Source: Chromera velia
Taxonomy: Eukaryota; Sar; Chromeraceae
Direction: 5' to 3'
Assembly (NCBI GenBank): GCA_018398765.1
Contig: JAHBMJ010001610.1
Location: forward strand, 1-28,062
DNA: 28,062 nt
Shown: positions 164-25,595 of the stretch, piece by piece
Numbering within the stretch: the first letter of the stretch is position 1
Layout of the letters: every line of letters begins with the position of its first letter
The notes under the pieces: generated by a model
Database searches by the model: none
Told to the model about the DNA's origin: nothing
Seen by the model: only the letters and a program-made list of their open reading frames with translations
Made by a program: the position numbers and the translations under genes

Positions 164-2303
164 ATGAAGCGACCTCAGTTTGGGCTCCTCTGCTTTCTTT
201 TCTGTAGCTGCTTGTGTGTAGCAGCGTCGGGCCCTGTCGCGGACTTGACGAAGGCACAAAAGGAAAGAGACGCGAGACCGTGGTCTTCTTCTAGGCCCTC
301 AGCGCTTTTGCATCGCCCTGGAACAGTTGTCCCCAAAACTTCAAGGACCGCTCTCCGACTTTCCGCAGGTGGCGCTGCAGGTCTGAAGATGTCAGCTCTA
401 ACGCAGGGCCTCATTCAAAGTGGCCTGGTGGCCTTGGTTAGTCTTTTCATGTGGCTGCCCTTTAAGTTCTTTGAAGGCGTCTCCTTTAATCTGTATCAAT
501 CTGGTTCTGCTCCCTGCAGGGAGCGAATAGTATCGGATACCTGATCACGCGCTTGACGGACACGCACAAAATCACCGATCTCGTTGGTCAGTCGCCATGT
601 TCTGCTCAGGAGTGCTTTGGCAGCGTGGGGGGAGAGAACGCCATTCACTTTCCGTCTCCGTTTTGCCGTCTCCTTTGTTTGACCGTGTCCCTCGATTTGC
701 TCCTGCTGCTGCTGCTGCAGGTACGGGCTCTTTTGTGGCGACTGCACTGGCGACACAATGGCGCACTGGCGTGTACACTCCGCGTGCTCTTCTGATGACA
801 GGTGCCATTTCTTTCTGGGGTACCCGCCTGGCTTCGTTTCTGTTCGCTCGGGTGCTGAAGCAAGGGGACGACGCCCGTCTCGGGGCCGTGTTCAAGAAGC
901 CGGGGGGCATGGAGGGATTCTGGACGATTCAAGCAGCCTGGGCCTGGATCTGTATGGTTCCCCACACACTCCTGCTTTACGGGGCCAAGTCCATGGCTGC
1001 AGGGTCTGCTGCGATGGCTTTGGGGCCTCTCGACGCAATTGCGGCGGTGGGCAGGGGGGAAGGATACTGCTTGCCTGTCACCAGTTGGCCTTGTTTTGTT
1101 CTTCTGATTCGACGTTCAAACTGATTGTTCAACAGGTCTTCCGTGCTCTCTTTCTTTCTCATTTTCTGACTGCATGACTTCGGATGGTGTATGATTGAGT
1201 CAGTATCGTGGTTGAAGAGAGATCGACATGCAGTCCGTTGGCTTCGCTTGACGTGACAGTCAATTTGCACGTGACTGCCTGCCTGCCTGCGTGCAGACGA
1301 TTATGATCGGAGGCATTGTGTTCGAGTCTGTAGCCGACTGGCAAAAGTGGAAACACAGATTTGACCCTAGCAAGAAGGGAACTTTTTGCAAGACAGGTAA
1401 GCGACCGATGGTCTGGGCATTTCGGTATAGACAGGAGGGGGAACGATGCAGGAGGAAAGAAATAAAAGAATGAAAAAGGGGGGGATCCAGAAGAAAGTCT
1501 AAGACAGAACCAGAATGGTAAGAGATTGGGTAAGGAGGTGCAGTTTTTTTTTTTTTTTAGAAGAGGCTGAGTGCGTGGAGGGCCGAGAGGGGGCAGGGGT
1601 GGAACGGCTGAGAAGAGAAGCCTACCTGGCTTGAGGATGGATCTCGTTCTGTTCTGGCTGTGTTTCTAGAAGTATTTATGAATATGCCCTCCTGAGTTTC
1701 CGTCGATAAGATTCGAGTCTTCTTTGATTTGACTCACCGAATGTGGCCTCGTCATTCCGTCCTTGGACTCCTCTTCGATCTTCGAAAGCCGGCTTTTCTT
1801 TCTTCCTGCTTTCCTTTCTCTCGTCTCATGCAGGTCTCTGGTCCCTCTGCCGACAGCCGAACTACTTCGGAGAGTGCATGCATTCATTTTCATACATGGT
1901 CCCTGAAGAATAATTCTGTATGAAAATGGATGCATGCACATGCAGGTCTCTGGTCCCTCTGCCGACAGCCGAACTACTTCGGAGAGCTTTGCACCTGGTG
2001 GGGCGGGTACTTCCTTGCCCTTCCGGGTCTCCTCGCGGGCCCCTGGGGATGGAAGGCGGTAGGTACGTCAGTGGGGGTGGGAGGGAGAACAAGAAAGAGA
2101 AGAGAACGTACAGCCACACGCACTCACGCACAGGTGACCGCATTGAGAACATCGCAAATGCCTTTCTTGACGAGAAAAAGAAATGGGCATGCTCCCTAGA
2201 CTGTGTTCGAATGATTGCAACTTGTGGAAGCGTCGGCATGCAGTTTTCTTCTCTTCTCTTCTCTTTCACGCGCATCCATAATCTAGGATGCGTGTCTGTA
2301 TGT

Positions 2304-2339
<36 letters not shown>

Positions 2340-2755
2340 GCACACGCATACACACACACACACACACAGACGCTCTAGACCAGCCGCTGTCTTTCGGATA
2401 TTTCCCTTTCTCTGTCTCCTGTCCCTTGGCTGTAGCGTAAGTGTTCATCTGCATAGAAGCACTCATTCTCCTTCCGCGTCTGCAAGCCTTCTCAATATCC
2501 TTCGGTCTGTATTTCTTTTTCTTCCTCCTTCTCTTCTTCATCTTCTGTTTCTTCTTGTTCTCGCAGGCTGCTCTGGGCGTTGTGTCCCCTCTGTGGATCC
2601 AGTTTTTGCTTCTGTTCGTTTCAGGCATTCCCTTGTCGGAGAAGGGCAACGAGAAGAAGTACGGGCAGATGGAGGAATACAAGCAGTACAAAAAGGACAC
2701 ACCGCTGCTCATCCCCAAAATTTCAAATGCCTTCAAGAGCAGCAAGCAGAGTTAG
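164..2755 (+). CDS. DUF1295 / steroid 5-alpha-reductase-like integral membrane protein with a secretory and transit-like leader (6 exons)
   Basis: Coding exons: 164-436, 520-586, 721-1046, 1297-1396, 1946-2058, 2567-2755. All phases close, giving about 355 aa ending at TAG 2753-2755. The family signature is split over exons 4-5: the segment VADWQKW is followed by a TG-LWSLCRQPNYFGE motif and WWGGYF, matching the conserved cofactor-side region of DUF1295 and related 5-alpha-reductase/ICMT-like enzymes. Several hydrophobic segments lie before it (GLVALGANSIGYLI, the exon 3 stretches) and one after it (PLWIQFLLLFVSGIPL). The N-terminus (residues 1-21, MKRPQFGLLCFLFCSC...) is a strong signal peptide. 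A Ser/Arg/Thr-rich, acid-poor stretch follows to about residue 75, which suggests a bipartite plastid leader; an ER location is the alternative. ATG 164 has AAA just before it. For exon 1 I chose donor TTG|gttagt (437) over GGC|gtctcc (479) because it joins into a family-like LVALG..SIGYLITRL helix. The substrate cannot be read from sequence. Exon 5 has a duplicated acceptor (see 1827-1986). Confidence 0.82.
1827..1986. mobile_element. Short inverted-repeat element E1 with 48-bp host duplication at the exon 5 acceptor
   Basis: Copy 1 (1827-1874) and copy 2 (1939-1986) are identical over 48 bp. They contain the branch-side CATGCAG acceptor plus the first 41 bases of exon 5 of the DUF1295 gene. 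The 64-bp insert (1875-1938) has 21-bp ends (1875-1895 and 1918-1938) that are inverted copies with one mismatch, each containing the TTTCATAC/GTATGAAA core. Use of copy 1 as the acceptor would run into element sequence and a stop codon. Copy 2 restores the conserved NYFGELCTWWG reading frame, so it is taken as the functional acceptor. Confidence 0.85.
2305..2369. repeat. (CA)n microsatellite, interrupted
   Basis: Alternating CA with a few CG and TA interruptions, inside intron 5 of the DUF1295 gene. Apparent ORFs across it on both strands are dipeptide-repeat artefacts. Confidence 0.95.
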
Positions 2756-2996
2756 AGCACTGGTGACGTTGTCTTCGTGAATGTCGCTATTGACGTTTGA
2801 TCGTCGGAGGCAGTTTGAATAAGAAGTGCAGTGACAGTCTGAGTAAGTCGATCTGGGTGTCAGCCACATGAAATGGAGTTGGTAATCGATTGTCAAAGTG
2901 AGCGGCCCATTCTTCAGTCAGGAAGGTTGAAATCTCTGCATGGACGGCGTTTTAGACCACTTGCGCCTGACACGGTGCGGCGTCAGATTTGTTTTC

Positions 2997-3002
2997 AATA
3001 AA
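2997..3002 (+). terminator. Possible polyadenylation signal AATAAA
   Basis: A canonical AATAAA lies about 240 bp past the stop codon of the DUF1295 gene, just before base composition changes to AT-rich. Whether this organism uses AATAAA is not known from the window. Confidence 0.35.
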
Positions 3003-3500
3003 GTTGAAACGTCATAGTGGTACCGTATATTACGGCGTATAATACCGTACAGAAAATTTGCTGCTAATCCTACTAGCACTTCATGTAGAGAAATAGCCAG
3101 ATTAAGCTAGATAAACAGTCTCAAGTTAACTCTTTGAGTAGATCAGCTTCAAACTTTAAAGGCCTTAAGCTTACTAATTAGGCGTCATAGTAGGTCTTAT
3201 AAGCAGTTAACTTTAAAACTGAAGTCACTGACAGTGATAAATTCCACCCAATTGACTGTTTGATAATGAGTTTATTATAAATCTAGTCAGAGAGTTAGTT
3301 TAATTTATCGTCTAATCTAGCGTCTATAATTTATCATGGTGATGAATTTATCATTTATCTAGTACATTAGTTTACTCCAGTTGAAAACTGTACCGTGGCA
3401 GACTATACGTCTATACAGATAGAGGTTTATATTCTAGGTTTATATTACTAGACCTACTACTAGACTTAATGATAGCTGATCGGTAGCCTGAATCTCAAAC
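3003..3500. other. AT-rich gene-free block
   Basis: Strongly AT-rich sequence with many short CTAG, TTAT and TAAT words. A small palindromic segment near 3021-3050 carries inverted TACCGTA/ TACGGT words. No ORF with coding character, no splice pattern and no RNA gene is visible. The composition contrasts sharply with the near-balanced exons on either side and resembles the blocks at 17290-17880 and 26130-26700. Confidence 0.7.
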
Positions 3501-4049
3501 AATTTCTATAAGCCTCAACGTGCATGCAATGGTAGTAAACATCGAACAAACCACCGGTACGGTCCGACTTGTTCGCTGTAGCTCCTGTGTGCATGAAGCC
3601 AGACCGCCGTCACCAGTGACTCATTCCGCTCATGCAATCAATCCCATCTGTCAGATTCATCAGCCAGTGACAGCCAACCATACCGTACTGCACGTATGTA
3701 CCGTACACGCGAAATCGGTGTCACGAAATCGATCGGATAATCAGATTTGTATTCAATGGATTCATGTTGCATCTCTCGACCATGCAAGCAGAACACATCC
3801 ATGCAGTCATTCGAATGCAATGAATTTGGTCACCGAGATTCAGCGACCATGCCGATCAGCTGAATCCTTTTTTGCGTTCCCCCAGAGAGTGCGATTGGGT
3901 GTGCGTGAACGAGGAAGGAGAATTTGCATGAGAAGCTTTCAACGACCAAATGAACACATGCACATCCACATGCGTACCTACCTCGTTCAAGACTCCATGA
4001 TGCATGCCTCACTTGCTCACTCGCCGATACGTCAACGAGGGCGCTCTGC

Positions 4050-4175
4050 TCTTCTGACACACCCACGTAGACCCAACAGCAAACAAGCAAACAAATCTTC
4101 TGACACACCCACGTAGACCCAACAGCAAACAAGCAGACACACCCACGTTGACCCAACAGCAAACAAGCAAGCAAG
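4050..4175. repeat. 46-bp tandem repeat, about 2.7 copies
   Basis: Units start at 4050 and 4096 and are near-identical over 46 bp (TCTTCTGACACACCCACGTA then GACCCAACAGCAAACAAGCA). A shortened third unit begins near 4133 with one substitution (ACGTAG to ACGTTG). The run ends in AAGC repeats. Confidence 0.85.
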
Positions 4176-4429
4176 CACCCAAAGGAAAACTTAAGCACAC
4201 TCCGAGGCAACATCAAAGTGAATCCGTCTCAATGAATTTCGCCTGTGAAAGAAATTCACCGAAGCAAGAAGGGGAAGAGCAGAATGGTCCCTCCAGTCGG
4301 TCGGTCAATCGGCCAGGCACGTTTTGATTCCATTCATTTAATGATCGAAAAACAGGCGAACATTCATTCGATCAGTCAGTCTGCTTGCATCCCTTCACTC
4401 GTTTACTCAACCACACAGCCAGACTCAAA

Positions 4430-4620
4430 GACAGAAAGAAAAGAGTAAAGAAAGAAAGAAAAAAGCAAAGAAAGAAAAGGGTAGAAATGAAGAAAGAGAA
4501 AGAGAAAGAGGAAGAGCAAGAGAGAAAGGAAGGAAGGGAAGGAAGGAAGGAAGAAAGAAAGATACCAAGACACCAAGGCACAACGAAAAGAAAGAAAAGC
4601 GGAAAGAAGGAAACATCAAG
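4430..4620. repeat. Polypurine tract (GAAA/GGAA-rich)
   Basis: About 190 bp almost entirely A and G on the plus strand, built from AAAG, AGAG and GGAA words, just downstream of the minus-strand NGTDW-repeat gene. It reads as a polypyrimidine run in that gene's sense. Low-complexity proteins predicted here are artefacts. Confidence 0.85.
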
Positions 4621-4844
4621 ACTCGCCAAGCCACCCAAACAATTCCTCGCTTGCTCTTCTTTTCTCTCCCAGTCCACACGCACGCAAACAACCGCACCCG
4701 AAAGAGTACAACGATCATTCCACCCAGACAGAACAGCGAAAGAGAAAGTGGCCACACAAGGGGCGAACCGACAACAGAGAGAGAAACGACTTGACTCAAA
4801 GGGACTGCATGGAAGGATGAGTGAAAGCAAAGCACTCAAATCAC

Positions 4845-5978
4845 TCAATGACATCCAACCGGAATGGCTGCACACTTCACCTCCAATTGTTTGTACCTCT
4901 TCTCGGCACTCACACACCCAGCAGAAGCACTCCCGGAAACCCGCAGATTCCCCAACGGCCCCCTGCCCACATTCCCAGAGGCCGTACCAAAGCACAAACG
5001 CCGGTAGTCAGAGTAGGCGCTGTTCTTCTCTCTGCAAGCTGCCACGTACTGATTGCACCCAACCCCACCAGAAACCACCTGCGTGTTCAACAGACGGCGC
5101 TCATCATCATCATCCTCCTCCTCTTCCTCTCCATACTCATCAGAGTCTCCATACTCATCTCCTTCTTCGCCCTCAAACTGAAGGAGCCTGTGGGCAGAAT
5201 CGCTCCCAGTCTCCTTGTCCTTCTGCGAACCTCCGAAGAGAGACTGGAGAAACGCGCCGGCACCGTCAGAGAATTTCTTCCCCTCAGCGCTGGCATCACT
5301 GACAATCTTCTGCCAGTCTGTGCCATTGGTGAACTTTTTCACCGCATCGCTGTTCACAAACTTCTGCCAGTCTGTGCCATTGGTGAACTTTTTGAACTCT
5401 GGGCTGTTGACGAACTTTTGCCAGTCGGTGCCGTTGGCGAATTTCTTGAACTCATCGCTTTTCGCGAACTTCTCCCAGTCTGTACCGTTGGTGAGCTTCT
5501 CAAACTTGGCAGCGACGGCCTTCGCAGCGGCCTGGGGGTCCTTCGCGTCGTCCTTGGAGGTTTCGGACGAGGAGGCGGAGTTGCCGTCTCCGTCTCCTGA
5601 GGCTCCAAGGAGACGGCCCCCAAAGAGACCTCCTACAAAGGAAGAGGCGTCACGGAATGCGTTGCCAACAGCCTGACTGGCCTTGGTGGCACCCTCCTTC
5701 GCAGAGTCTGCCACCTTCTTTCCTGCGTCGGAGGCATCGGAAGAGGCGGAGAGAAGGCGACTTCCCTTCTTCTCCTTCTGGTTGCCCGAAAAGAGATTCT
5801 CCCAGAACTGGGCAGTTCTGTTGCCGAACTTCTCAAAGTCTTCACTGATCTGCTGCCCAACGGACTTGGCATCTTTCTCAACAGTTGCTTCGATGTGAGA
5901 GCGGGTATTGTTGGCAGTTGCCGCCTCTGACAGCCCACAGGCGGAAAGTCCGAGAAGGAAGAGGATTTGAAGCTTCAT
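4845..5978 (-). CDS. Secreted modular protein with NGTDW repeats, RLL motifs and a cysteine-rich tail (377 aa, single exon)
   Basis: The start is ATG at 5978-5976; the frame stays open a little further upstream, but without another ATG. It encodes a clear signal peptide, MKLQILFLLGLSACGLSEA, with likely cleavage after residue 19. Residues 164-222 hold four NGTDW(E/Q)K units at an exact 18-residue spacing (164, 182, 200, 218), each an N-glycosylation sequon. RLL motifs fall at about 74-76, 122-124, 264-266 and 295-297. Three of them follow an LF(S/G)G motif by 2 to about 15 residues. Residues 270-293 are very acidic (Glu/Asp/Tyr/Gly). The last 70 residues contain six cysteines. I do not recognise a known family; the layout suggests an extracellular or vesicle-targeted glycoprotein that may be cut at RLL sites. 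It is the only intronless gene in the window and is divergent from the C2-domain gene. Stop TGA is at 4847-4845. Confidence 0.85.
   Translation of the reverse strand: MKLQILFLLGLSACGLSEAATANNTRSHIEATVEKDAKSVGQQISEDFEKFGNRTAQFWENLFSGNQKEKKGSRLLSASSDASDAGKKVADSAKEGATKASQAVGNAFRDASSFVGGLFGGRLLGASGDGDGNSASSSETSKDDAKDPQAAAKAVAAKFEKLTNGTDWEKFAKSDEFKKFANGTDWQKFVNSPEFKKFTNGTDWQKFVNSDAVKKFTNGTDWQKIVSDASAEGKKFSDGAGAFLQSLFGGSQKDKETGSDSAHRLLQFEGEEGDEYGDSDEYGEEEEEDDDDERRLLNTQVVSGGVGCNQYVAACREKNSAYSDYRRLCFGTASGNVGRGPLGNLRVSGSASAGCVSAEKRYKQLEVKCAAIPVGCH
5307..5515 (-). repeat. 54-bp in-frame tandem repeat encoding the NGTDW units
   Basis: Repeat units begin at 5307, 5361, 5415 and 5469, exactly 54 bp apart, on the plus-strand reading (CTTCTGCCAGTCTGTGCCAT and close variants). 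The two units at the 3' end of the gene are most alike; those nearer the start are more diverged. Confidence 0.9.
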
Positions 5979-6637
5979 GGTTATGTTGGGACAATTCAAA
6001 AGATTCAGCGATCACGTACGTCACAATCAGGAAGCTCACAGAGGCGTGTAAGAGAGCTATGAACAATCAGAATCACAAGGGTGATGAGTCTGCAAACGAT
6101 GCGATTTGACAGCTTTGGCATTGGAATCTGCACAAGTTTACATGGGAGGAGAACAGCGGCTGGAAGGCTGCAAAGAAGTCTTTTTTGAAGTCTTTGCATG
6201 CACCCTCCAATTTCTTTCGCGCGATGCCTCAAAAAGAAATTCGCGTGGAGGACTTGCGCGGGCGGCGGGCGGGGCTCACCTATACCCGCGGCCGGCTAGC
6301 TCAGTGCACAGCTAGCCGGGCCCCGGGCCGAGACCCGCGGCCCGGCCGGCGCGCCGCCGCGCGTTGAGCTAGGTCGGCTGCACAAAGCAAACCTTCGATC
6401 GCCGTGAATTAATGCGTGATACGTCGGAAGATGCCCCGACGCTTTCCTATTCAATGTTAGCGCTGTCCTTGAGTGCATGAACATTTTTTCTGCATAAGCA
6501 AGTGGGTATTCTTCAAGCTGAGCCGACGAGAGGATCGTCAGTGTGTCCAAAGTGGTGGAACCATCTAGCCGGTGTAGTTGCTCGAGCAAGTGTTGCTCAG
6601 TAGGAAGGCAAGTGTCTGACCTTCGAAGGAGAATCCA
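5979..6637. promoter_or_regulatory. Shared upstream region of two divergent genes
   Basis: 659 bp separates the start codons of the minus-strand NGTDW gene (5978) and the plus-strand C2-domain gene (6638), so both promoters should lie here. No TATA box stands out. The only conspicuous structure is the GC-rich hairpin cluster at 6252-6365. No coding segment is supported, although an upstream non-coding exon of the C2 gene cannot be excluded. Confidence 0.5.
6252..6365. repeat. GC-rich hairpin cluster
   Basis: A stretch of roughly 110 bp, mostly G and C, in a region of balanced composition. It contains a perfect 10-bp stem (6292-6301 with 6310-6319, CCGGCTAGCT / AGCTAGCCGG, 8-nt loop) followed by a second stem (6324-6330 with 6338-6344, CGGGCCG / CGGCCCG), then GGCCGGCGCGCC-type sequence. 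Confidence 0.85.
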
Positions 6638-9600: not shown

Positions 9601-10195
9601 CCCCCCCCATGTGCAGGACAGCGAAGTCCTCCAAGGAGACGACGAGCTGGGCTTTGTGGAAATTCCCGTCGAGACTCTGCAGGCAGAGAAGGTCGAAAAG
9701 ATGTGGTTAGTTAGTTGATTCAAGGAGAACAGAGAGTAGATTGTGTCAGTTTCGGGGCCGTTTAGATTGAAGCAAAACATCTATCTGGCTGTCGAGAAGA
9801 AGAAGAAGAAGACTCAAAACGAGAAAAATGAAAATTCTGCTCTTCTCAGCTCTTGTGCGAGGGGTGCTACCACCATAAGTAGCCGCAACTCATCCGGACG
9901 TTGCGCGCATGATGAATGAAGAAGTAAAGCCAGGAGCGACTGACTAAATCTCCCTCTCCATTCTTTCCCCCCCCCCGTTCCTGCCTGCCCGCAGGCTTCC
10001 CCTCTCTCCCCCCCAGTCCACTCTTCTCTGCCCTGAAGAGGAGGCTCAGGCCAAACTCAACTCGCAGGTGAGCTTCGGATGCACATGCAAACCACAATGC
10101 CTCCCTCCCTCTCTTCGTTTTGTCCGTTTGACTCTCTGCTTCTTTCTCGATCTATTAATCTCGTCGTCTATCTGCTGGAAATTCCGACCCCTTCC

Positions 10196-10230
<35 letters not shown>

Positions 10231-13200
10231 CTTCCCTTCCCCGGCCTTTCTGTTCATCATAACCCTTTGTTGCTTGCTTGCTTTCAGGCCTCTGGCGCCC
10301 AGGCCCAGGTTCTGGTGGCAGTGAAGCTCGAGAGGCTGGCAGGGCTTTGGGGGACAGTCTGCGCACACACACTCCCAGAACCTGAGGTCGCAGGGGCCAA
10401 CCTGACTATGCAGGTCAGTCATTCATTTTCATACAGAACAAATAAATGTATGAAAATATTTTGTATGAAAATTCATGCAAGAACCTGAGGTCGCAGGGGA
10501 CAACCTGACTATGCAGGACAGTCAGTTAGCCAGTTAGTCAATCAGCGAGGGGGGTGTAAAGGTCGATCGGTCGTTTGATTGCACTGGCTCTCTACCAACG
10601 AGACGAAAACCTTTTATCTTTTTGTCCGCATTCTGTTCTTCCTTCCCCTGACAAATTGTTCTGCAGATGAGCATGGCCCTTTTATTTTCATACAGATTGC
10701 TTGTCTGACTGATTAATTAATTCTGCAGATGAGCATGGCCCAGCAGCCCCTCGACGTCGCACAGCTGTACCTGGAGATTTCGGGCGTTCGTCGCGTTCTT
10801 TTCGGCCGTCTCCTGCTGCCTCTCCTGGCCGTGCTGAAGGACCTGGTGCAGTGGAGACATGGATACGCTGGCCTGGTTCCGTGGGTGCTCATATGGTCCG
10901 TCCTTCCTTGAGCTAGTCAGCGAGTAAGTGAGTGTCTGTCGGGCTTTCAAACTAATACAGGGAATGATTTTCTGAAATGCGAAAAGTCCACAGAAGCGCA
11001 GAAGGAACTGAGCGAAAATCGAGGGTAGAAAAATGTTCGGTCCAACGAGTCAGAAAAAATGGTAGAAGAGAAGAGTGGCTCACAAGCTGCCGTGAGAGGC
11101 TTTGCCTGTCGTCTCAAGAAAGCCTCGGGAGGTTCCCCTCCCTTTGCCGATGTCCCTCTCTGTCTGTTTGTTTGGCTTTCATTGTGCAAGAACGACAAGC
11201 ATGCGAGACAGGCACGCGCTTTCTGCATGGAGTACAGTGCCTCGCAATCTGTATCCTTAAGACTCCAGCTGTCGGCTCCCTCTTTCTCCATCCTTCCCTT
11301 CCACCTTTTCCCTTTTCTCTCCTCCCTCCTTGATTACTCTGCAGTGCATGGTTCTGGATGCCTCTCTACCGGTGCGCTGCGTTCTATGCCATCGCGGTGA
11401 GTCTCACTCCGTCTCCCTCTTCTGTTTCTGTCTGTGCATGTTCCACGTGAGAAAGCAAAGCAAAAATGCAATGCACTTGGCTTGAGATGGCATCAGAAAG
11501 GAAGGTTCTCTGATCGATCGATCGGTGTCACATGGGGGTTCTTGCATTTACTGTACGAACAAGAATTCTGTATGAAAGGTAAATGCATGCGATGTCACAT
11601 GGGAGTTCTACGTCGACGTGCGCGGGTGAAACCTTGCCGGTGGCTGGCTGCTTTCCGACTTCAATCTTGCCTTTTGCTATTGCGGGCAGTAGAGAGAATG
11701 GTTGTGGGGCCCTAGGCGTTGGTGTGGGTCTCTCAAGCTCGAGTGGTTGCGCATACCTCGAGTTACATATCTATCCTCCATGGAGATGCATTTAAAGTTG
11801 GACCGACCCTTTCTTGACTCATTCCATCCTGTTCGTGTTTCTACCTGTCTGTCTGTTTTTCTGTCTGTTGTCTGTCTGTCTGTCTGTATGTATGTATGGA
11901 CGTATGTTTGTTTCTGTACCTTCCTTCAGGTGATTTTTCTGAGCACCTGGCCGGTGAAGCCCCTGTCTGGCTCTGGCAGGGACAGCACGAGCAACTCTCC
12001 GGACAGTGCAGCGACAGGGAGCGGCAAGGAGCCCAAGGAAGAAGGGGTGGAGGACACAGGACAGACGCCATCGAGAGGTCAGGCTCTCTCTAGCTCGGTC
12101 TTTCTTTATTTCTGTCTTTCTGTCTGTCTGTCTGTCTGTATATTTATTTATTTCTTTTTTTTGCTCTGGCAGAGAGGCAGGCAGGCTAGCTGTTTACTTG
12201 ATCGAAAAAAAAGAGGCTGGTGCCGAAATGAAATGAGGCAATGAACCGGAAGCCAAAAAGCGGCTGGAGAGTTCAAAAGGCAGGAACGCCAAAACGTTAG
12301 AGAGAAGAAGCGATCAAGCAAACAAATGAAATTGCAGGAAGAGCCTTCATTCCGATGAGTGAACAAACTCACGATGATGATGAAGAAGAAGAACCTAGCC
12401 AGCTGTCCAACCGAGAGGAAAACTCTTCGCTCGTGCAAAAGAGAGAAGAGTCTACCGGTTTCCCTCTAGCTGTCTCGTTGTCCCTACCGTGTTTCTTTGT
12501 CTTCCTTTCTGCAGCAAGCCGTCTCTCAGTAGGCCCAGGTGGAACCGGACACAGGAGAAGCCACAGCAGGGGGGGAGCGCCTCTTCCCAAAAAGTCAGCG
12601 GGAGACGAAAGGAGGAAGGAAGGAAGGAAGGAAGGAAGGAAGACTTCGTCCTTATCTTCATTCATTAATTCATTCATTCATTCACTCATTCATTCATTCA
12701 TTCATTCATTCATTCTACAGGCAGCGAGACAGAAAGAGAATGCCATTACGGAGCCACTCGATCGCGTGGGGGTCTCAAGCAGAGTCGACTGGATACCCTC
12801 ACACTACTAGCCAGAGAAGAGAATTGGGATCTCTGAATTTGAATTTGAATTGAATGTCCACATGAAATGGATGGAGGGGACACGGGAGACTGATTAAATG
12901 GATGGGTGCACAGGCCCGCATCTTTTGTCTCCTCTCTTCTTGCCTTCCGCCTTTTGAATCTTTGACTCCATTCATGCCCTTTCTTACTCATATTTCCGTT
13001 TCCCTTTCCTTTCCCTTTCTTATGTGCAGCTCCTTCATCAGCGAAGGCATCTCCTCGATCCAGGGGGCAGGTCTGAGACGTTCGATGACAAGCAACAATA
13101 TGGGGGTCAGTCAACCAACTAATCAATCAACCAACCAATCAATCAATCAGTCAACCCAGTCAGCCAGTCAGTGAGTCAGGGAGTCAGCTAGCTAGCCAGT

Positions 13201-13880
13201 CAGTCAGTCTCAATAGGGGCAGGGATCCGAGCGCGGGTGCCTACAGGCTTACAGGGGGACCTCCGCACAAGCTATGCATGTACTTTCTCCCTTTCTTCCT
13301 CTCTCCTCCCTTGCAGCAGAACGGGGGGGGGAACAGGGACGTCCTTTTGGTCAGTCAGTCGGTCGGTCAGTCAGTCAGTCAGTCAGTCAGTCAGTCAGTC
13401 AGCGGGACGGCCAATCAACAATCAATGCTCTCTCTCAATCACTCATGCATTGAGTAGAGCAGTCAGCAAGTTCTTTCGGGGGATCATCAGGAAATCAGAA
13501 AGTCTGCATGGATCGGAGAAGCACAAACAGAGAAGGAAAGGAAGACAGACAGACAGTCAGTCAGTCAGACAGACAGACCGACAGACAGACAGACAGTAGA
13601 CAGGGAAACAGAAAAAAACGCGGATCGATCGTTTCATGAAGGCAATTGGAGCCGCCTCCTCATTCAAACAGCCAGAACTAGCTGATTGAGTTTGGTGATG
13701 CATTTAAAGTTGCCTCTTGATGTTTTTCTTCTTTGACCGATCTGCCGCTGTCGCTCGTTTGGTTTGTGTGTGGAACGCTGTCTTTCTCAATATTCCTGCC
13801 TGGCTGTCTCGCTGCCGCCACCTCTTGCATGATCATACGCGTATGTGCGTAGGTGCGTGTGTGTATGATGTGTGTGTGTC

Positions 13881-13914
<34 letters not shown>

Positions 13915-15285
13915 TGTGTCTGCAGAGGCGGCAAAGCAGTCTCCACGTCGACAAGGCAAAGGAATTTGAGATCAAGAAGACTCCTGAATACTTGGAGGTC
14001 AGTGATCTCGGCTGAATGGGAGGGAAGGAGTAAGACACACATGAATACACACATGCGTGGTTACATAGAAAGACCGATACGTCTATACACACGGAGATGT
14101 ACTGAAATGACGATCGAGGTTTTTTTTAAACGGAAATGAGACCCCATCAGCCCTCAGTAAGGACACAGCGAGCGCTCCGACCCATTGTTTCGTTTGTCAT
14201 GCACAGAGATTGATGAGTGCCCTTGATCAGCTCAAATAATCGTCTGTCAATCGTCTGTCAGTCGAATGTTCTTTCTGATTCAACTTACGTACTCCTCCAG
14301 CAGTTGTCTGTCCGTCCGTCCTAGCTGTGGCTCGTAAACGACATCCATCACCCTGTGCTTCATTCTCCTTCTTTGAACTGGCTGCAAGTGCCTGAGGGAG
14401 GGAGTGGGTTAGTCAGTCAGTGAGTGAGCGAGTATCTGTGTGCACACCTGCAGGCCGAGAAGGATGTGGAGGTGATGGTGACGGTGGCTGCGATGATCAT
14501 CCCGGACGTTGTGGCTCTCCGCCGAGGCCTTCTGGCACTCAGGACGCCTCTCCTGCACTTCACAGGGTGGGCCTGAGGGGGAAAGGGAGACAATGAAAGG
14601 GGAAGGAGAAAGGAAGTAAGCGAGATATTTGCTGTGGATTGTATAAGCTGATTCATTCAGCAGCTGAGATTATTGGATTGAGGGATCGATGGATGAATAG
14701 AAATGTGCGCATTCACAAGTGCGCACTGTCAAATGCTTGATTTGCTCGATGATGATGATGATGATGCGTGTGCAGATACACTTGAATGTTGATTGCTCTT
14801 CTCGATGTACAGTGTACAATGATTCTCTGTTGCTGCTTTTAGTCCTGGCTTTTTCCTCCCTTTTTTTGCCTCAGAAGAATGTCTTTCGTGTTAGAAGGAA
14901 GCTTTTTGCCTGCACATTTCCTTTCTTGATGCTGCACATTTTTACTCCATGTACGTCTTTCAAAGTCCTAGACACGAAAATGGAAACAAAAAAAAAATCC
15001 CGGAAATTTACTGCTTGCTCGAATGATTTTCTGTTCTGTTCTGTTCATGCAAGAATATGGGTACTCACCCGTTTTGGAATGGAATGAACAGAGTCACTCC
15101 TGACCGCTTTTCTTTTCTTGAGTCACCCATTTTCGTTCCTCGATTGTCATCATGCCATCCATCACGCATGCGATGAATCTGTATTTACTCTCCTCATGTG
15201 TGCATCTGTTTGTCTGCAGAACACTGAAGGGGATCGATCGGTTCCTCACAGAGAAGGGCACAGCCATGCATTCTCTGGTCTGTCG

Positions 15286-15316
<31 letters not shown>

Positions 15317-16524
15317 AGTAGGCTTCTTAGGGCCCTTCCGGCGATCGATACATATGACACAGACCCACCCAACACGCAGCCCAAGAAAAAAGAGTTCAAC
15401 AAACAACCTACTGACAATCGCTTCACTGAAGAGACTTCCTTTGAAATTCTTTTGGTGTCATTTCTGCTTTCATTTGTCGCTTCCTTCTGTTTGTTTGTTT
15501 GTTCCTTTCTTCGACCTTTCTCGTCATTTTCGCTCTTTTTCTGTTTCCCTTCTTTTTATGATTTCCTCCTCCAGGTGAGTGGAGCGTTCCTTCTCCTGGC
15601 GTGCGTCAACTTCCTCTTCCCCTCGACGTTCAACCCCATGCACCACTCGGCTTTGTTCATTGGACGTCAGTCAGCAGGAGAATATGTGTGTATGTGTGTG
15701 TGTGTGTGTGTGTGTGCATGTATGTGAGTGTGTGTAAGTGTGAGTGTGTGTAAGTGTGAGTGTGAGTGTCTGTGTATGTGTGTGTGTTCATTTTCCTTGT
15801 TTCTTTCGTATTTGATGGACGTTATCTCTCTCTCGACTTCTTCTCATGTTTATCATTTGGGCGCTTGCCTCTCCTCTCATGAGTCTGCATTCTTGGCCGG
15901 GAGAGAAAAGAAGCACAGAGTAGTGTGCTGTCTTGTCCGTCTTCACCAAGAGCTTTCTGCCCTTTCTCTCTTGCTTGAATTTCTCTCTTTTTTTTCTGTC
16001 AATTCCAAAAGTTTCGATCGCTTTGTTGATTCCCCTTGATTATAATTTCTACGCTTCTAGAAGACTTTTCTCTCTTTGTATCCCTTCTGACGGACGGCCT
16101 CGCTGGATAGTGTTTGGCCCTTTTTCTCTTGTGATCACTTCACTCAGTAATTTGTTTTTCTTTTCGTCGCCCTCTTTTTTCTTTTTGTCATCTAGTTGGT
16201 CTGTTCTCCTTTCAGTCCACTAGCCTTCATTCCCTCCCACTGGCTTCCTTCCTGCAGTGTTCCTTCTCTTCGCGTCCTTCTCTCCGCCCGGGCGTCTCTT
16301 CTTGGCTTTCCTGAATTTCCTCCAGACTCCTAGGAAGGGTCAGTCAGGTAGTGAGGGGTAGGTAAATCTAGGTTGAGAGGGAGGGGGGGCGCTGTTTAGG
16401 AGAATCAATGGACGAAGGGGGTCTTCAAGGAAATGCATCCTTCTTCTTTATCTCTTCTTGATCTTCACTGGCGGTCACAGGGGTAACCTGTCTTCTTGTT
16501 TTTTTTTAACTCATTTTTTTCTTT

Positions 16525-16555
<31 letters not shown>

Positions 16556-16734
16556 CTTTTTGTTTTTTTCTACCTTTCCTGTCTCTGCGTCAACCGATCT
16601 TCACAACTTTTTGGCTCTTGTGCCCTGCATGCATGCGCGCAGGACTTGCGGGCGTTCCTGGGGCCCTTCCGGCGTCTGAGGCCGAGGTGGGGGGGGGGGA
16701 TCGACGGGATGGGCCGGGAGGGTCCCGGTGGTAA
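6638..16734 (+). CDS. C2-domain protein with C-terminal multi-pass membrane region, MCTP/ferlin-like (about 22 exons)
   Basis: Exons: 6638-6645, 6729-7009, 7467-7645, 8008-8166, 8381-8483, 8750-8841, 9091-9135, 9617-9705, 9995-10067, 10288-10413, 10729-10895, 11345-11396, 11930-12077, 12515-12538, 13030-13070, 13317-13349, 13926-13997, 14454-14566, 15220-15277, 15575-15665, 16258-16338, 16643-16734; about 708 aa. All junction phases agree. The 8-nt first exon (ATGGCCTG) is chosen because it joins in frame to give MACCTSRDAASLQLEK. Residues 85-160 are highly charged and probably coiled coil. Residues 210 to about 370 form a C2 domain: LKLLIVGARNLK, then DPFFKASL, then VVFFDRDSEVLQGDDELGFV, which retains typical calcium-loop aspartates. 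Hydrophobic hairpins follow (VLFGRLLLPLLAVL; LVPWVLICAWFWMPLYRCAAFYAIAVIFL), then a Ser/Lys-rich linker (about 470-560), then a second hydrophobic pair (SGAFLLLACVNFLF; LFLLFASFSPPGRLFLAFL). Inferred role: calcium-dependent membrane tethering. The last exon is uncertain: splicing 16686 to 17050 would instead end at 17109. Confidence 0.75.
9001..9028. repeat. (CTTT)n microsatellite
   Basis: Short run of TTTC units in intron 6 of the C2 gene. Confidence 0.9.
9380..9400. repeat. (CA)n microsatellite
   Basis: Uninterrupted AC run in intron 7 of the C2 gene. Confidence 0.9.
10199..10229. repeat. (TC)n microsatellite
   Basis: Uninterrupted TC run in intron 9 of the C2 gene, about 60 bp before the acceptor at 10287. 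It may serve as an extended polypyrimidine tract. Confidence 0.9.
10377..10524. mobile_element. Short inverted-repeat element E2 with 45-bp duplication of an exon end and its donor
   Basis: Copy 1 (10377-10421) holds the end of exon 10 of the C2 gene and its donor ATGCAG|GTCAGT. Copy 2 (10480-10524) repeats it inside the intron with two substitutions, one of which changes the donor GT to GA. The 58-bp insert (10422-10479) has TTTTCATAC at its left end and GTATGAAAATTCATGCA at its right, as in E1. Confidence 0.85.
10659..10741. mobile_element. Short element E3 with 21-bp duplication of an acceptor and exon start
   Basis: The sequence TTCTGCAGATGAGCATGGCCC is present at 10659-10679 and, identically, at 10721-10741, separated by 41 bp starting TTTTATTTTCATACAGATT. 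The left arm matches the E1/E2 core; the right arm is not recognisable. Copy 2 leads into exon 11 of the C2 gene. Copy 1 would hit TGA after 13 codons. Confidence 0.75.
11526..11609. mobile_element. Short inverted-repeat element E4 with 17-bp duplication, mid-intron
   Basis: Direct copies at 11526-11542 and 11593-11609 match at 16 of 17 positions (TGTCACATGGGGGTTCT vs TGTCACATGGGAGTTCT). The 50-bp insert starts TGCATTTACTGTAC and ends with AATTCTGTATGAAAGGTAAATGCATGC, read as two inverted arms. It lies within intron 12 of the C2 gene, away from splice sites. Confidence 0.75.
12613..12718. repeat. (GGAA)n followed by (ATTC)n microsatellites
   Basis: GGAA units at 12613-12641 and ATTC units at about 12661-12716, both in intron 14 of the C2 gene. 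Confidence 0.9.
13350..13402. repeat. (GTCA)n repeat starting exactly at a splice donor
   Basis: GTCA/GTCG units begin with the donor of intron 16 of the C2 gene (TTTTG|GTCAGTCAGTCGG) and continue in the same 4-bp register to about 13402. Confidence 0.85.
13547..13596. repeat. (ACAG)/(TCAG)n repeat
   Basis: GACA and GTCA tetranucleotides in intron 16 of the C2 gene, a second array within the same intron. Confidence 0.85.
13869..13915. repeat. (TG)n microsatellite
   Basis: TG run, pure from 13883 to 13912, ending just before the acceptor CTGCAG of exon 17 of the C2 gene (exon starts 13926). Confidence 0.9.
15278..15317. repeat. (GTCT)n repeat starting exactly at a splice donor
   Basis: The donor of intron 19 of the C2 gene (TTCTCTG|GTCTGTCGGTCTGTCT) is the first unit of a GTCT array that runs to about 15317. 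Confidence 0.85.
15683..15787. repeat. (TG)n-rich microsatellite
   Basis: Imperfect TG repeat with TGAG and TGTA units, in intron 20 of the C2 gene. Confidence 0.9.
16519..16556. repeat. (CTTT)n microsatellite
   Basis: TTTC units in intron 21 of the C2 gene, forming an extended pyrimidine-rich stretch upstream of the acceptor at 16642. Confidence 0.9.
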
Positions 16735-18556
16735 TAGCCCTACCTGGCGGGGCATGGGTTCATAGCATCAGGGGGAGGGGGGGGTCAGCGAGAAGTGTTC
16801 ACATAGACATGGGAAGGGAAGGGGGGGTTTGAACGACTTGAGGTGCAGGTGTCCCTTTCCTGTCTCCTCTCTCCTCCCCTCTTCTCTTTCTTTGTGTGTG
16901 AGGTTTTGATGTTTGATGGTCAGATGGCATTGAGTGAGTGAGTGAGTGATTTCCGATTGAAGAAAAGACCCTGAATAAATTCGTCAGGAAATACGAGAGG
17001 CAGAGTTTGCCGAGTTCCTGTCTTCTCACCTTGCGGCTGCTGCTTTCAGTTCCATCAGTCCGCCCTTGTCCCAGCACCCAAGGGTGGGCTGGTCTTTCTG
17101 CCTACCTAAGTTTTCAGGAACTGAGAGGCACCAGACCTCTCGCATCCACGCACGAAGCCCAAACGAAAGCCGACAAGGAAGGTTTTGGTCGGCACACAGC
17201 GCCACGTGAACTCGTGAGGAAGTGAGAGAGAGATAGGGCTGCATGCCATCTGTGCATGTATACGGTTTTTTTTTTTTCTATCATCATCAGCTGCATATCA
17301 GCTACAGATAAAACAGATCAAGCAGGCCAGTTGATCAACGTGCATCCGTGTTTGTTTAGCTCTGATAACAAACTTCTAAGCTGTAATTCAATTTAATATT
17401 TAAAGATTGCCTTAGATCTTTTAAAAAATAAATTTAATGAATTTGATATGTATCCAATTTAGTCTGGAAGATTGCTTTAGATGATTAGTTGTAGATGCAT
17501 GATATTACTTTGAATTTTATTATAGAAAAACTAATTAGTTATTATAAACGTACGTATGAACACAAGTTATATAAACAAAAAGACTATGCACAGACTGGTT
17601 AATTTATTAATTTTAAGTTATATATTTTAAAAGGTTATCATTTATAGCGGCTCACTGACATAAACCAAAAGTAGGCTAAGAAGGGCTTAAATAGCTAAAC
17701 TGATATTTTTTATAATTCAAGGCAGTTAGATTGACGAGTATACCACTGTAAGGCAGAAAGAGGGGAAAAAGGGGGGTAGATCGTATACTGAGAGGTAGCG
17801 CTTTCTTACGGTCTCTTATGGAGAATACTACAGAGTTAAAAGTCTGAAACATACAAAAAGGCGCAAAAATGCGAAGAAAAAACCTTAGACCACCTGTTTG
17901 AAGCTGTTTCAGGCTTTGAGCTAGTGTTTGAGTGCCTTTTTGCTACCTTTTGTACCTTTTGCAACACTACTGCCCATAATGGTGGCATAACCGCCCATAA
18001 ACTTGTGTGGGGCTACGCGCGAACGTGTATTGCGCGCGGATTTTTTGTCTTTTGATTTTTGCCGCAACATTTTGCGCAGTAACTTGCGAGACGGCAGTGT
18101 TTTTTTTTTGTATCTTCTCGCTCCATTCCTGCATATTCCTGCTCCTCGATTCTCACGATCTCTCACGCATTTTAATTGACCCTCTTTCTCGTATACCGGC
18201 CTGCAATTCTTCGTATTTGTTTGCTCGGAAGAGGTGGCCCAGTGGTTGCATGTGCAAGGAAGTACTCTTGAGAAAGAGGGAAACGGGATCTGTCGATCTG
18301 TTAAGTCTCCCTCAATCTACCAGAAGGCCTCCTTGAAGGAAGAAGGGAATCCAGCGGAGGGTCGATGAGGTCCCAGCGGTGACGCGCCTCCTCCACTGGC
18401 GTGTTTTGTCTTTCGAGTCTCCGGCTCTTCTGTCTCAGCAGACAGGTACAGCGAGGGTCTGCCGGAGGTAAAGTTGTCGAGGGGCAGAAGCAAAGGGAGT
18501 GGTTCTTGTGCTTGAGTGGCTTCACCGTCTCTGACTCAGACCAAGCGCACCGGACC
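16735..18556. other. Intergenic region with a central AT-rich block
   Basis: 16735-17290 has balanced composition and may hold an alternative last exon of the C2 gene (17050-17109, after the acceptor GCTTTCAG). 17290-17880 is strongly AT-rich with no ORF. 17881-18556 is again near-balanced. A short Lys/Arg-rich minus-strand frame (17921-18166) has no family I recognise. No RNA gene is visible. The promoter of the EF-hand gene should lie in the last few hundred bases. Confidence 0.6.
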
Positions 18557-21500
18557 ATGTTGTTAACAGCTTGTGCCATCTCAGCGGTCGCACTCTTGCG
18601 AGGGGTCAGTGGCAACTTTGGTAGATCCCTTTCCATCCGTTGGTGCTTCTTTTTGGCCCTTGAAGGCATCTTTTCCCTTTTCACCGAGGGGGAGGATACA
18701 CGGTCTTCCTTCCTGCCTCTGTGGAAGACCATAAGTGGACCGTCACCTCACGTTCCTTTTCTTCTCTCTGTATTGCCCTTGGCTGTTTGTTGCGTGCTCG
18801 TTTGAGAATTCCCCATCTTCCTTATGGCTGATTCTATCGCTGCATGCAGGCCGCTGCACTCGGTCACTCCAAGTACCAAAAGGCCCTCGAACAAAGTCAG
18901 TCTGACAGGCAGACAGTAAGCCGGAGTGGACAGGAAGTGAAGGATGAAAAAGGAAAAAATACCCGGGAGACAAGGCGGTGGGCCTCCCGATAGTTCCCCT
19001 TCCGGAGGAGACGGCAATGATTGATCTTCTCTCTTTCTCTTCTCAACGTCTTAGCCTCCCTCACCCATGACTGAGGCCTCTGGTCGATCTGCCTGCCTGT
19101 CAGCGTGTCGCCCTGTCTGCTTGCACACACACACACACACACACACACGCGCGCGCGCGCGAACACCTCAGTTGACGCCTGCGAAAAAAAAGTAGGACGG
19201 GGAATGTTTGACTTTCGTCTTTTGCACCCATACCATACCTGTGAGGGATCTGGAGTAGAGAGAGATCTGGTAGATCCAGTCAGAAAGAAAAATGGATGTC
19301 TCTTGATTCCACCCCACCTGAGATCTGCTGATCTTCATCACGCATACAAGATTCGAAATGTGCGATTGAACAAAAGATCTTTCATGCGCTCACTGTGACT
19401 GACGGATCAACTGACTGACGCAGGTGATCTTGAATATGCTTTCGGAAACTTCGACAAGGGACAGTGTGCGTCTGAGCTGTCGGAGCTTGACCTCAAAATG
19501 TCCGACGATGAGTTGAAGCACGAGGCCTACATGAAGTGTGCAGACCTCGTGAATCCCTCAGGATACCATGTGTGCTCCTTCGCTGCCGACAGGGTGCTTT
19601 GGTCAGCATGGGCCCTCCCTGGTCTTCTTTCTGTCTGTCTGTGGCTTTTTTTTGTTTCACTCGAATTCGTTGCTCTTTCTTCTGCATCAGAAGAGTAGAA
19701 GAGGTGGTCCCGGCGACGGTCAGGGATCCATGGTGTTCCTTCTGTTCTGTTAAAGCGGGAGGGATGCCGGTGCAGTCTTTGTTTGGTCTCTTGGTGGACG
19801 GATGGGTGAAAGGGACGACGCTTGTTTGTGTCCAGGTTCCACACAGGTGCATGGAAACGCACGCACACACGCGCACACAGGGAGCAGGAGGTCGATCTGT
19901 CGCGTGCCCACGAATTTCTTTTTGCTTTTGTGCTCAAATTGCTGGGGGGTGGGGGTGGATGAAATGATCTCTTCATTTGTGGAGCTGCCTGCCTCTCTCT
20001 CTCTCCCTCTGTGTGTGTGTGCCTGTGCCTGTGTTTGTGCAGGTACGCGGAAGAGAAGAAAAAGGGTGTGTTGCCTGAGGAGCTGCTGACTCCCGAGAAA
20101 TTCTGTCAGCACATCGACAACACTTTTTCTTGTGCGAAGATGGCCTACAAAGTTCTGAAGTCGGACTTCTTGGGGGACTCTGCGTTCGGCCTCTGCTTCC
20201 GAGAAAGGAAAGACGCGGTGGGTTAGTGAGTGGGTGGGTGCGTCGTTGGGGTGTTCAATGCGTGTGTGTGTGTGCGATTGAGCCTGGGTTGGGTCTTTGG
20301 TTCTTTTCTGCTGAATTGTTCTTTTGCATTCGCCAGAAGTGATGGTCTGTCTAGGTTCATTGAGCGTCGTTGTGGGTGCCGTTCCTTCATTCTGCCGTTG
20401 TCGTGCGTGATTCGAGTCTTCAGGCAGCTAGAACAACTGTATTCTTTTTTCGTTTTTCTCTGTACTTTTCCGGTTTGAGTGTGGACAGACGCAGACAGAC
20501 ATTTGCTTTCTCTGCTTTGCTGGAGCAAAATGTTCTTCGGGCTCGATGCAGTCGGTTCACCTATGAATGTGTGCTTCCACATGGATGCTTTTGTTTGATC
20601 GTTTGGAGTGTGTGTGTGTGTGTGTGTGCACGTGAATGGCCATGCAGAAGTTCTGCAATACGTTCCACAACGTGATCAAGGAGACGGCAGACAGCGACGA
20701 CATCGATTTCCTCAGTGCCTGTCTGAAGGCACACGAGCCCGTGGTGGCAGGGCTGAAGGCTCCGGAAGCTGCACCAGCGGAGAAGCCGTTCGGGGTCGAG
20801 GAGCCGAAGCCAAAGCCGAAAGAGGCAGGCGGCTTTGGCTCAGGGGGCGCCTCAGGAGGCCCGCCTCCCCCCAAGCCCAAAGAAGAAAAGCCGAAGGAAC
20901 CAGAGCCACCGGTGGGTGAGAGAGAGGGCCTCCAGGGTTGGGTGGGATGATGAGTAGAGGGAAAGGACAGGAGGGTAAGACAGGGAAGCAGGGAGGACAT
21001 TGATGGCAGGCAGCAGAAAGGAAAGGATCGTCTTTGCTTGATGGTTCTACACGAAGAGAGAGGATGCTTGCTGTTATGTCGTCTGTCTGCCTGAAGTCAG
21101 GTTGCACAAAAAATAAATCTCTGCCACTAGCTGTTGCTATGGTCACTCACACCGTTGATGCACCACTTGCTGTTCCTTTTCATTGCCTCGCGTCTTCTGT
21201 CTTTCTGCGTGTGGCCCCATCTCTTCTCCATTTCCCGTTGTACTTGCTGCCTTTCCCTCCCTTCCACGGCATCATCGCACATCCATGAATGCAGAAGGGG
21301 CCGATCATCATCAGACCCTGCATTTACTTTCATACAGAATTTTTTTTTTGCATTTTACCCCTGTATGGGTGGATGCAAAGTAAATGCATGCAAAGATTGC
21401 ACATCCATGAATGCAGAAGGGGCCGATTATCATCAGACCCAAACACGGAGAGCCTCCTGAGGGCCCCCCCATGTCCGGGTCTGTGGCCGGCAATCTGGAG

Positions 21501-25499: not shown

Positions 25500-25595
25500 T
25501 CTAACATTAACAACTAATTATTATTAATATCACCTGACTCACCTCACTGGCACTACAAGCCACTTAAAATTTTTTTCGGCAAATTTTCGCTCTGA

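What the first reader, a model, noticed from the sequence alone, without database searches (positions are those of the whole stretch)
1827..21440. A family of tiny inverted-repeat elements with very long, variable flanking duplications, all in introns
Five insertions (1875-1938, 10422-10479, 10680-10720, 11543-11592, 21319-21398) share arms built from TGCATTTAC/TTTCATACAGAAT and its inverse GTATGAAA..AAATGCA. They are flanked by direct duplications of unique host sequence of 48, 45, 21, 17 and 42 bp. Cut-and-paste elements with inverted ends normally give fixed duplications of 2-10 bp. Variable duplications of 15-50 bp are typical of target-primed reverse transcription, but those products lack inverted ends. 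The combination suggests an unusual insertion mechanism, such as widely staggered nicks or template switching around a hairpin, and perhaps an undescribed class of element.
Basis: partly seen in the sequence, partly recalled or inferred. Interest (0 to 1): 0.9.

Follow-up and report, generated by a model that had tools for sequence, protein, structure and literature searches.

The report
Tiny hairpin elements with long duplications
An unidentified intron-rich eukaryote carries many copies of a tiny hairpin-shaped mobile DNA element whose insertions are flanked by an unusually long and variable duplication of host sequence (about 16 to 62 bases), which does not fit the usual rules for how such elements insert.

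Summary
All five window elements have the stated arms and flanking duplications (48, 45, 21, 17, 42 bp). In the 178-Mb source genome the arm TTTCATACAGAA occurs 2,177 times against 12 for the reversed control. Of 83 distinct arm sites scored, 73 have a flanking duplication, against 85 of 1,500 random positions. In 56 clean single insertions the duplication is 16-62 bp (median 34) and the element 31-101 bp (median 67). Protein homology (SDHA, J-domain, USP, kinase, adenylate kinase, EGF, DUF1295) indicates that one copy of the duplicated segment is ancestral. Element ends are ragged and share excess microhomology with the target; the three main arm subtypes pair only with themselves; elements fold strongly; some loci are tandem arrays. 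The duplicated segment is about 3-fold enriched for the 3' splice motif TGCAG, so 'in introns' is too simple. A second, unrelated hairpin family may share the architecture. Best reading: a foldback element joined or copied into widely staggered breaks with microhomology, not classical cut-and-paste; the mechanism is inferred. Published introners have 3-9 bp duplications; the nearest precedent for long ones with inverted ends is the bacterial IS1202 group.

The parts
1827..1874 (.). Element 1, host copy 1 (48 bp; contains 3' splice motif CATGCAG|G and the first coding bases of a DUF1295 exon)
   Evidence: identical to 1939-1986
1875..1938 (.). Element 1 (64 bp foldback, CAT-type arms on both sides)
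1939..1986 (.). Element 1, host copy 2, continuing into the exon RQPNYFGELCTWWGG
   Evidence: PF06966, E 2.7e-8
10377..10421 (.). Element 2, host copy 1 (45 bp; inferred exon end ATGCAG|GTCAGT, keeps GT)
10422..10479 (.). Element 2 (58 bp)
10480..10524 (.). Element 2, host copy 2 (donor GT reads GA in this copy)
10659..10679 (.). Element 3, host copy 1 (21 bp; inferred TTCTGCAG|ATGAGC 3' junction)
10680..10720 (.). Element 3 (41 bp; only the left arm is recognisable)
10721..10741 (.). Element 3, host copy 2, continuing into an open frame
11526..11542 (.). Element 4, host copy 1 (17 bp)
11543..11592 (.). Element 4 (50 bp)
11593..11609 (.). Element 4, host copy 2 (16 of 17 identical)
21277..21318 (.). 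Element 5, host copy 1 (42 bp; inferred ATGCAG|AAGGGG 3' junction)
21319..21398 (.). Element 5 (80 bp, TAC-type left arm)
21399..21440 (.). Element 5, host copy 2, continuing into an open frame KGPIIIRPKHGEPPEGPP..DK|GTAAGT

Best explanation
E is a non-coding foldback (hairpin) mobile element of about 70 bp that depends on functions supplied elsewhere. New copies are joined or copied into a target opened by two nicks on opposite strands 16-62 bases apart. Because both ends of the opened site carry the intervening host segment, filling in leaves that segment (H) on both sides: H-E-H. The ends of E are matched to the broken target ends by a few bases of microhomology, often from its TGCA-rich termini, instead of being cut and joined at exact ends by a dedicated transposase. 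After insertion, exchange or slippage between the H copies gives (H-E)n arrays. Copies persist in introns, or at exon edges where H spans a splice junction so that an intact exon and splice site remain. SHOWN: the family, H-E-H, H length and its variation, ancestral single H at several genes by homology, ragged ends, microhomology, hairpin folding, arrays. INFERRED: opposite-strand nicks, repair-type joining or copying, dependence on outside functions, and selection at exon edges.
For: Duplications 16-62 bp, mean 34.7, no clear correlation with element length (-0.16), copies 95.4% identical, 17 of 56 perfect; 73 of 83 sites against 85 of 1,500 controls. Four further arm sites, fetched for another purpose and so blind to this question, are all H-E-H with 23-35 bp (4 of 4). 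Ends ragged. Microhomology at the 53 of 120 ends that could be scored: 75 bases in all, 39 of 53 ends with at least 1, against 36.7 (sd 7.4) and 23.3 (sd 3.6) under a null that includes boundary ambiguity (reached by 1 and 0 of 4,000 simulations). E folding z mean -4.9 against -0.16 for flanks. Single H by homology: Pfam matches that run over an H boundary for DnaJ, UCH, Pkinase, FAD_binding_2 and EGF and DUF1295, PDB alignments for SDHA and adenylate kinase. EGF paralogues run through H uninterrupted in 3 of 33 non-self matches. Arrays. Long duplications around other fillers, and a second hairpin family, hint at a general route rather than one transposase.
Against: No enzyme, intermediate or polymorphic empty site was observed. 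Ragged ends could partly be decay of old copies, an inner arm taken for the outer one, or imprecise H boundaries. Of 42 elements with both arm subtypes readable, 21 agree and 21 do not (mostly minor or decayed types), and agreement is expected from ordinary subfamilies too. 10 of 83 sites show no duplication at the threshold. Microhomology also occurs at target-primed reverse transcription junctions (recalled). No sharp nick motif at the H ends. Coding potential at H is not significantly above the flanks (p 0.055), and pattern-defined acceptors and donors are only 1.3-1.6 and 1.4-fold enriched, so the exon-edge part rests mainly on TGCAG and a few genes.
Confidence: 0.5

Rival explanations
1. 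A MITE-type TIR DNA element moved by an unseen transposase that makes very wide, flexible staggered cuts, with duplications like those of the bacterial IS1202 group.
For: Inverted ends, with the three main arm subtypes pairing only with themselves (20 of 20); exact 22-mers ending in TGCATT.. recur 138, 42 and 106 times; IS1202-group elements give 16-28 bp duplications (PMC10132070, passages).
Against: Duplications vary 16-62 bp within one family; ends are ragged and microhomologous; the two pairs of facing arms tested as ends of a long element were separate small elements. I did not search for transposase genes.
Confidence: 0.2
2. Retroposition: a short hairpin RNA is copied by target-primed reverse transcription, which gives long variable duplications.
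For: Variable duplications of this kind and junction microhomology are typical of that route (recalled); DNA-transposon pieces moved by LINE machinery are known as retro-DNAs (PMC11195612, passages); E would be a stable RNA hairpin.
Against: By eye no shared poly-A or fixed 3' tail in the 56 (L060 ends A-rich) and no clear nick motif; truncation is on both sides rather than one; retro-DNAs are reported to lack inverted ends.
Confidence: 0.2
3. Template switching in replication: the polymerase leaves its strand, copies E, and returns upstream by the length of H.
For: Microhomology at the junctions; variable H; palindromes stall forks (recalled).
Against: Should also give insertions with deletions or without duplication; only 10 of 83 sites lack a duplication at the threshold. 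Hard to separate from the best explanation on sequence alone.
Confidence: 0.15
4. E inserts with a short or no duplication, and H copies arise later by tandem duplication.
For: Tandem arrays exist, and plain tandem repeats are common here.
Against: A later tandem duplication that includes E would give two Es; the 56 clean cases have one E between two Hs, and the 4 blind ones too.
Confidence: 0.05

Closest known systems
Introners (Gozashti et al. 2022, PMC9860276, passages; Amoebophrya introners, PMC7789003, passages)
   Same: Short, repeated, often with inverted ends and flanking duplications; associated with genes and splice sites.
   Different: Their duplications are given as 3-9 bp (Amoebophrya 3-5 nt); ours 16-62 bp. 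That E is spliced out as a new intron is not shown here; at the genes with homology the splice junction seems to have been there before.
IS1202 group of bacterial insertion sequences (PMC10132070, passages)
   Same: Inverted ends together with unusually long duplications (16-28 bp, across different elements).
   Different: Bacterial elements that code for their own transposase; ours is about 70 bp, non-coding, eukaryotic, with duplications up to 62 bp that vary within one family, and ragged ends.
Retro-DNAs in primates (PMC11195612, passages)
   Same: DNA-element sequence with longer duplications than its class should give.
   Different: They are reported to lack inverted ends, and some have poly-A tails; ours has inverted ends and no evident tail.
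Daphnia neointrons from staggered double-strand breaks (PMC4202315, passages)
   Same: Staggered-break repair leaves direct repeats around an insertion in a gene.
   Different: Exon-derived repeats there are 4-12 bp; ours are longer and the insert is a recurrent hairpin family.
MITEs / foldback elements (general knowledge, recalled)
   Same: Tiny, non-coding, inverted repeats, many copies.
   Different: A short duplication of fixed length is expected, which is not met here.

Membership tests
MITE / TIR DNA transposon | terminal inverted repeats | tested here: met
   TTTCATAC (either strand) in 59 of 60 elements; both arms (up to 1 mismatch each) in 38 of 60; perfect inverted arm of 12 or more in 29 of 60
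MITE / TIR DNA transposon | short target duplication of fixed length | tested here: not met
   16-62 bp in 56 insertions
MITE / TIR DNA transposon | precise element ends | tested here: not met
   arm offsets 1-21 nt (50 of 60 left ends found) and 4-25 nt (52 of 60 right ends found); excess microhomology. Age and inner arms may add to the spread
MITE / TIR DNA transposon | autonomous relative with the same ends and a transposase | tested here: inconclusive
   two facing-arm pairs tested, all four ends were separate small elements; no search for transposase genes was made
Introner | insertion creates a new spliced intron | not testable with these tools
   no RNA data; several H lie at exon edges that look older than the insertion
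Introner | duplication in the published range of 3-9 bp | tested here: not met
   against the range read
Non-LTR retroposon (target-primed) | long variable target duplication | tested here: met
Non-LTR retroposon (target-primed) | poly-A or fixed 3' tail | tested here: not met
   by eye on the 56; L060 has an A-rich end
Non-LTR retroposon (target-primed) | preferred nick motif at one end of the duplication | tested here: inconclusive
   only weak base preferences (at most 39% for one base), both ends pooled
IS1202-type long-duplication IS | related transposase | not tested
   no search for it was made
Staggered-break filler insertion (Daphnia type) | short (4-12 bp) repeats | tested here: not met
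   16-62 bp; the insert is a recurrent family, though other fillers also occur

The most novel reading that the evidence does not exclude
A host-wide insertion route in this lineage that captures small DNA or RNA hairpins of any sequence (at least two unrelated families, TTTCATACAGAAT and ACGCACGCAAGGA types) into breaks with 16-62 base staggers, favouring 3' splice-site regions, so that hairpins spread without a transposase of their own and enlarge introns by copying exon edges.
Probability: 0.3. Interest if true: 0.88.

Novelty: new variant of a known kind. Interest (0 to 1): 0.7.

Why it matters
Target-duplication length is a signature used to classify mobile DNA. A eukaryotic hairpin family with inverted ends and 16-62 bp duplications, ragged ends and microhomology breaks that rule and points to capture by repair or template copying. 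The frequent presence of a 3' splice motif in the duplicated segment offers a way for introns to grow and splice sites to be duplicated, which bears on the open question of how introns gain sequence. Copies are numerous and part of them recent (17 of 56 with identical H copies), so comparing strains would test it directly.

Tried and rejected
Assembly artefact: unlikely, because the H copies differ in 39 of 56 cases and each locus has its own H and loop. Known RNA: no Rfam family in the window at gathering threshold. Larger autonomous element: two facing-arm pairs, in C1386 and C1427, were separate small elements. Viral contigs: exact 22-mer in 0 (the tool may leave out records near the window's own genome). 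General exon preference: not significant. Splice-site patterns were probably swamped by pyrimidine repeats; TGCAG was more informative. A first microhomology test used too weak a null and was redone with boundary ambiguity included. Kinase locus L024: no paralogue, self only. Decay of TGCAG in one H copy: only two loci differ, too few to tell. Organism: not identified. Amorphochlora amoebiformis does not fit (214 Mb, GC 27%; passages of PMC12730881; the window has GC 47-52%). Chromera velia was considered because of size and low-complexity richness (193.66 Mb in 5,953 scaffolds, passages of PMC4501334, against 177.8 Mb in 4,040 contigs here), but not tested. The HERV-K, wheat, flagellate and Arabidopsis papers were seen only as listings.
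Full report
What was checked. Writing H for the duplicated host segment and E for the element, each locus reads H-E-H, with H of 48, 45, 21, 17 and 42 bp. Three of the five H pairs are not identical (43/45, 16/17, 41/42), so they are duplications that have begun to drift.

Genome-wide. The window lies in an unnamed eukaryotic assembly of 177.8 Mb in 4,040 contigs. The pattern TTTCATACAGAATN{2,32}GTATGAAA has 197 + 237 hits with 0 for the reversed control (elements with two perfect arms count on both strands). Exact 22-nt arms occur 57+81, 22+20 and 41+65 times for three subtypes, all with control 0. The 12-mer TTTCATACAGAA occurs 1,076+1,101 times against 9+3.

Duplications. Eighty-three distinct arm clusters were scored for a flanking direct repeat; 73 reach score 14, against 85 of 1,500 random positions treated alike. 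Ten of 83 do not. Of the 73, 17 were dropped from the length statistics because the repeat ran into the arms (nearly all tandem arrays; L026 is a single insertion with a long imperfect repeat) or the element was an array (L020). The remaining 56 give H of 16-62 bp (mean 34.7, median 34), E of 31-101 bp (median 67), 95.4% identity between copies, 17 of 56 perfect, and no clear correlation of H with E length (-0.16). One of the 56 (L037, first site) is doubtful, because its H itself holds arm sequence. Four more places, fetched to test whether two pairs of facing arms bound a long element, turned out to be four separate H-E-H insertions with H of 32, 23, 35 and 32 bp: a small blind test, 4 of 4.

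The element. With window elements 2-5 there are 60 in the working set. TTTCATAC is present on either strand in 59 of 60, GAATTC in 49, GAATTCTTTTTC in 18, CAGGGAG in 6; both arms with up to one mismatch in 38; a perfect inverted arm of 12 or more in 29. An alignment of the 21 that have 50-85 nt and a TTTTTC or CAGGGAG core gives a shared form T.CATTTATTTTCATACAGAATTCTTTTTCA...loop...ATTCTGTATGAAAATAAATGCAT. Elements fold far better than shuffles (mean z -4.9, 48 of 60 below -2; flank control -0.16, 3 of 60). The three bases next to the arm could be read on both sides in 42 of 60. The main types pair only with themselves (TAC 9, CAT 8, TTC 3; no mixture of these three); overall 21 of 42 agree and 21 do not, the latter with a minor or decayed type on at least one side, such as TAT/CAT (3) and TAG/TAC (2). 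Some loci hold arrays of (H-E) units: L020 (six), C663 (six), C353 and C3293 (five each in the list), C1 (five).

Was H single before insertion? The two flanks were joined with one H and translated. Ten peptides were scanned (nine from joined sites, one of them window element 3); seven matched Pfam at E below 0.1 (DnaJ 8.7e-13, UCH 3.4e-10, Pkinase 6.1e-11, FAD_binding_2 3.1e-20, EGF_3 9.7e-12, ADK_lid 2.1e-10, and WD-repeat models below their cut-offs), three matched nothing. The ADK_lid match itself lies outside H, but the adenylate kinase peptide aligns over 56 residues, H included, to a PDB chain; the SDHA peptide aligns over 92 residues without a gap to succinate dehydrogenase. Element 1 of the window lies at a DUF1295 exon (2.7e-8). 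Apart from the ADK_lid match these alignments run over one boundary of a single H, so the second copy is extra; each tests only one side. In a DNA search with the joined EGF locus, 3 of 33 non-self matches run through all or nearly all of H into the exon in one piece (the tool scores only the best candidates). The kinase locus has no paralogue at this level. No orthologous empty site could be examined.

Ends and microhomology. The distance from the edge of E to its arm (found with up to 2 mismatches in 50 left and 52 right ends of 60) varies: 1-21 nt on the left, 4-25 on the right, with 9 nt, the full TGCA end, the commonest (13 and 9). Some large values may be an inner arm. At 53 of 120 ends where the arm is clear, the bases of H next to E match what the arm would have had there: 75 bases in total, 39 of 53 ends with at least one, 19 with two, 10 with three. 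A first shuffle test overstated this, because a chance match also shifts the apparent boundary; a simulation with that effect included gives means of 36.7, 23.3, 8.3 and 3.1, and at most 8 of 4,000 simulations reach any observed value in any of three settings.

Place of insertion. TGCAG or CTGCA is 2.95 times as dense in H as in the flanks (29 in 1,941 against 333 in 65,672 bases; 22 of 56 H). Read inward from either end, TGCAG starts 22 times in the first 16 positions of H (120 ends) and 6 times in the 30 positions outside. In all, 26 of 60 H have the motif in at least one copy. At genes with homology the H seems to span an exon edge: 3' side in USP (L022), adenylate kinase (L084) and window element 1; 5' side in SDHA (L052), kinase (L024) and J-domain (L007); the exact junctions are inferred from GT/AG, not from RNA. 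In window element 2 the upstream copy keeps the donor GT and the downstream copy has GA, as expected if only the first is used. Against an exon preference: coding potential at H is not significantly above the flanks (p 0.055), and simple acceptor and donor patterns are enriched only 1.3-1.6 and 1.4 fold. So enrichment of a 3' splice motif is supported; its cause, targeting or survival, is open.

Is E special? In about 168 kb of flank of 65 loci, 10 further H-X-H had E arms, two of which (L009, L013) had themselves been search targets, and 13 had other fillers, of which about half are plain or coding tandem repeats. A few other fillers look real, for example a TAA-rich one in L023 and an A-rich one in L002. 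One, in L091, is a different hairpin, ACGCACGCAA..TTGCGTGCGT, between 33-bp duplications. That pattern has 55 places in the genome, control 0, many with GGACGCATC inside, and tandem runs of 82-94 bp period, such as five copies in C74 (64 bp in C401). If single copies too have long H, the duplication length belongs to the host's insertion route and not to one element.

Mechanism. A fixed-stagger transposase is disfavoured by the spread of H, the ragged ends and the microhomology. The simplest account is two distant nicks on opposite strands, with E joined or copied in by microhomology and both H strands filled in. Target-primed reverse transcription of a hairpin RNA, a flexible long-stagger transposase, and replication template switching remain possible; sequence alone does not separate them.

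Comparison with print. Introners are reported with 3-9 bp duplications (PMC9860276, passages) and 3-5 nt in Amoebophrya (PMC7789003, passages). Long duplications with inverted ends are reported for the bacterial IS1202 group, 16-28 bp (PMC10132070, passages); longer duplications of DNA-element sequence without inverted ends for primate retro-DNAs (PMC11195612, passages); staggered-break repeats of 4-12 bp for Daphnia neointrons (PMC4202315, passages); direct repeats near introns of 4-30 bp (PMC11782384, abstract only). My searches listed no eukaryotic inverted-end family with duplications of this length; most listings were capped (for example 20 of 273 papers, 10 of 2,834) and the library is open-access only, so this is not proof of absence.

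Noticed in passing
L091:1861-1977 and 55 places genome-wide (e.g. C74:16114-16516, C57:123441-123654, C2402:9327-9452): A second, unrelated hairpin family (ACGCACGCAAGGACGCATC..) that may share the long-duplication and tandem-array architecture; one locus read, the rest known by coordinates only.
   Followed up: partly
L023:212-349, L002:21-152, L037:472-598, L045:2325-2412: Long direct duplications (24-47 bp) interrupted by fillers without the E arms, some A-rich or TAA-rich.
   Followed up: partly
window 4845-6011 (minus strand), repeats at 5302-5517: Stop-to-stop frame of 388 aa with a hydrophobic start (MKLQILFLLGLSACG) and 18-residue repeats (..FTNGTDWQKF..); no Pfam match above its cut-off.
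   Followed up: partly
window 23365-24582 (plus strand): 405-aa open frame; the 312-residue part scanned has no Pfam match.
   Followed up: partly
window 25592-25745; related repeat at L013:9-67: 33-35 bp tandem repeat GGACTATGTCTTGAAA; a related CTATGTCTTGAAAAGC repeat lies in another contig.
   Followed up: no
window 4050-4173: Tandem repeat (GACACACCCACGTAGACCCAACAGCAAACAAGCA) with almost no filler.
   Followed up: no
L007:about 1116-1400: J-domain exon segment of about 57 bp repeated around two copies of a very decayed E-like filler, upstream of a younger E in the same gene.
   Followed up: no
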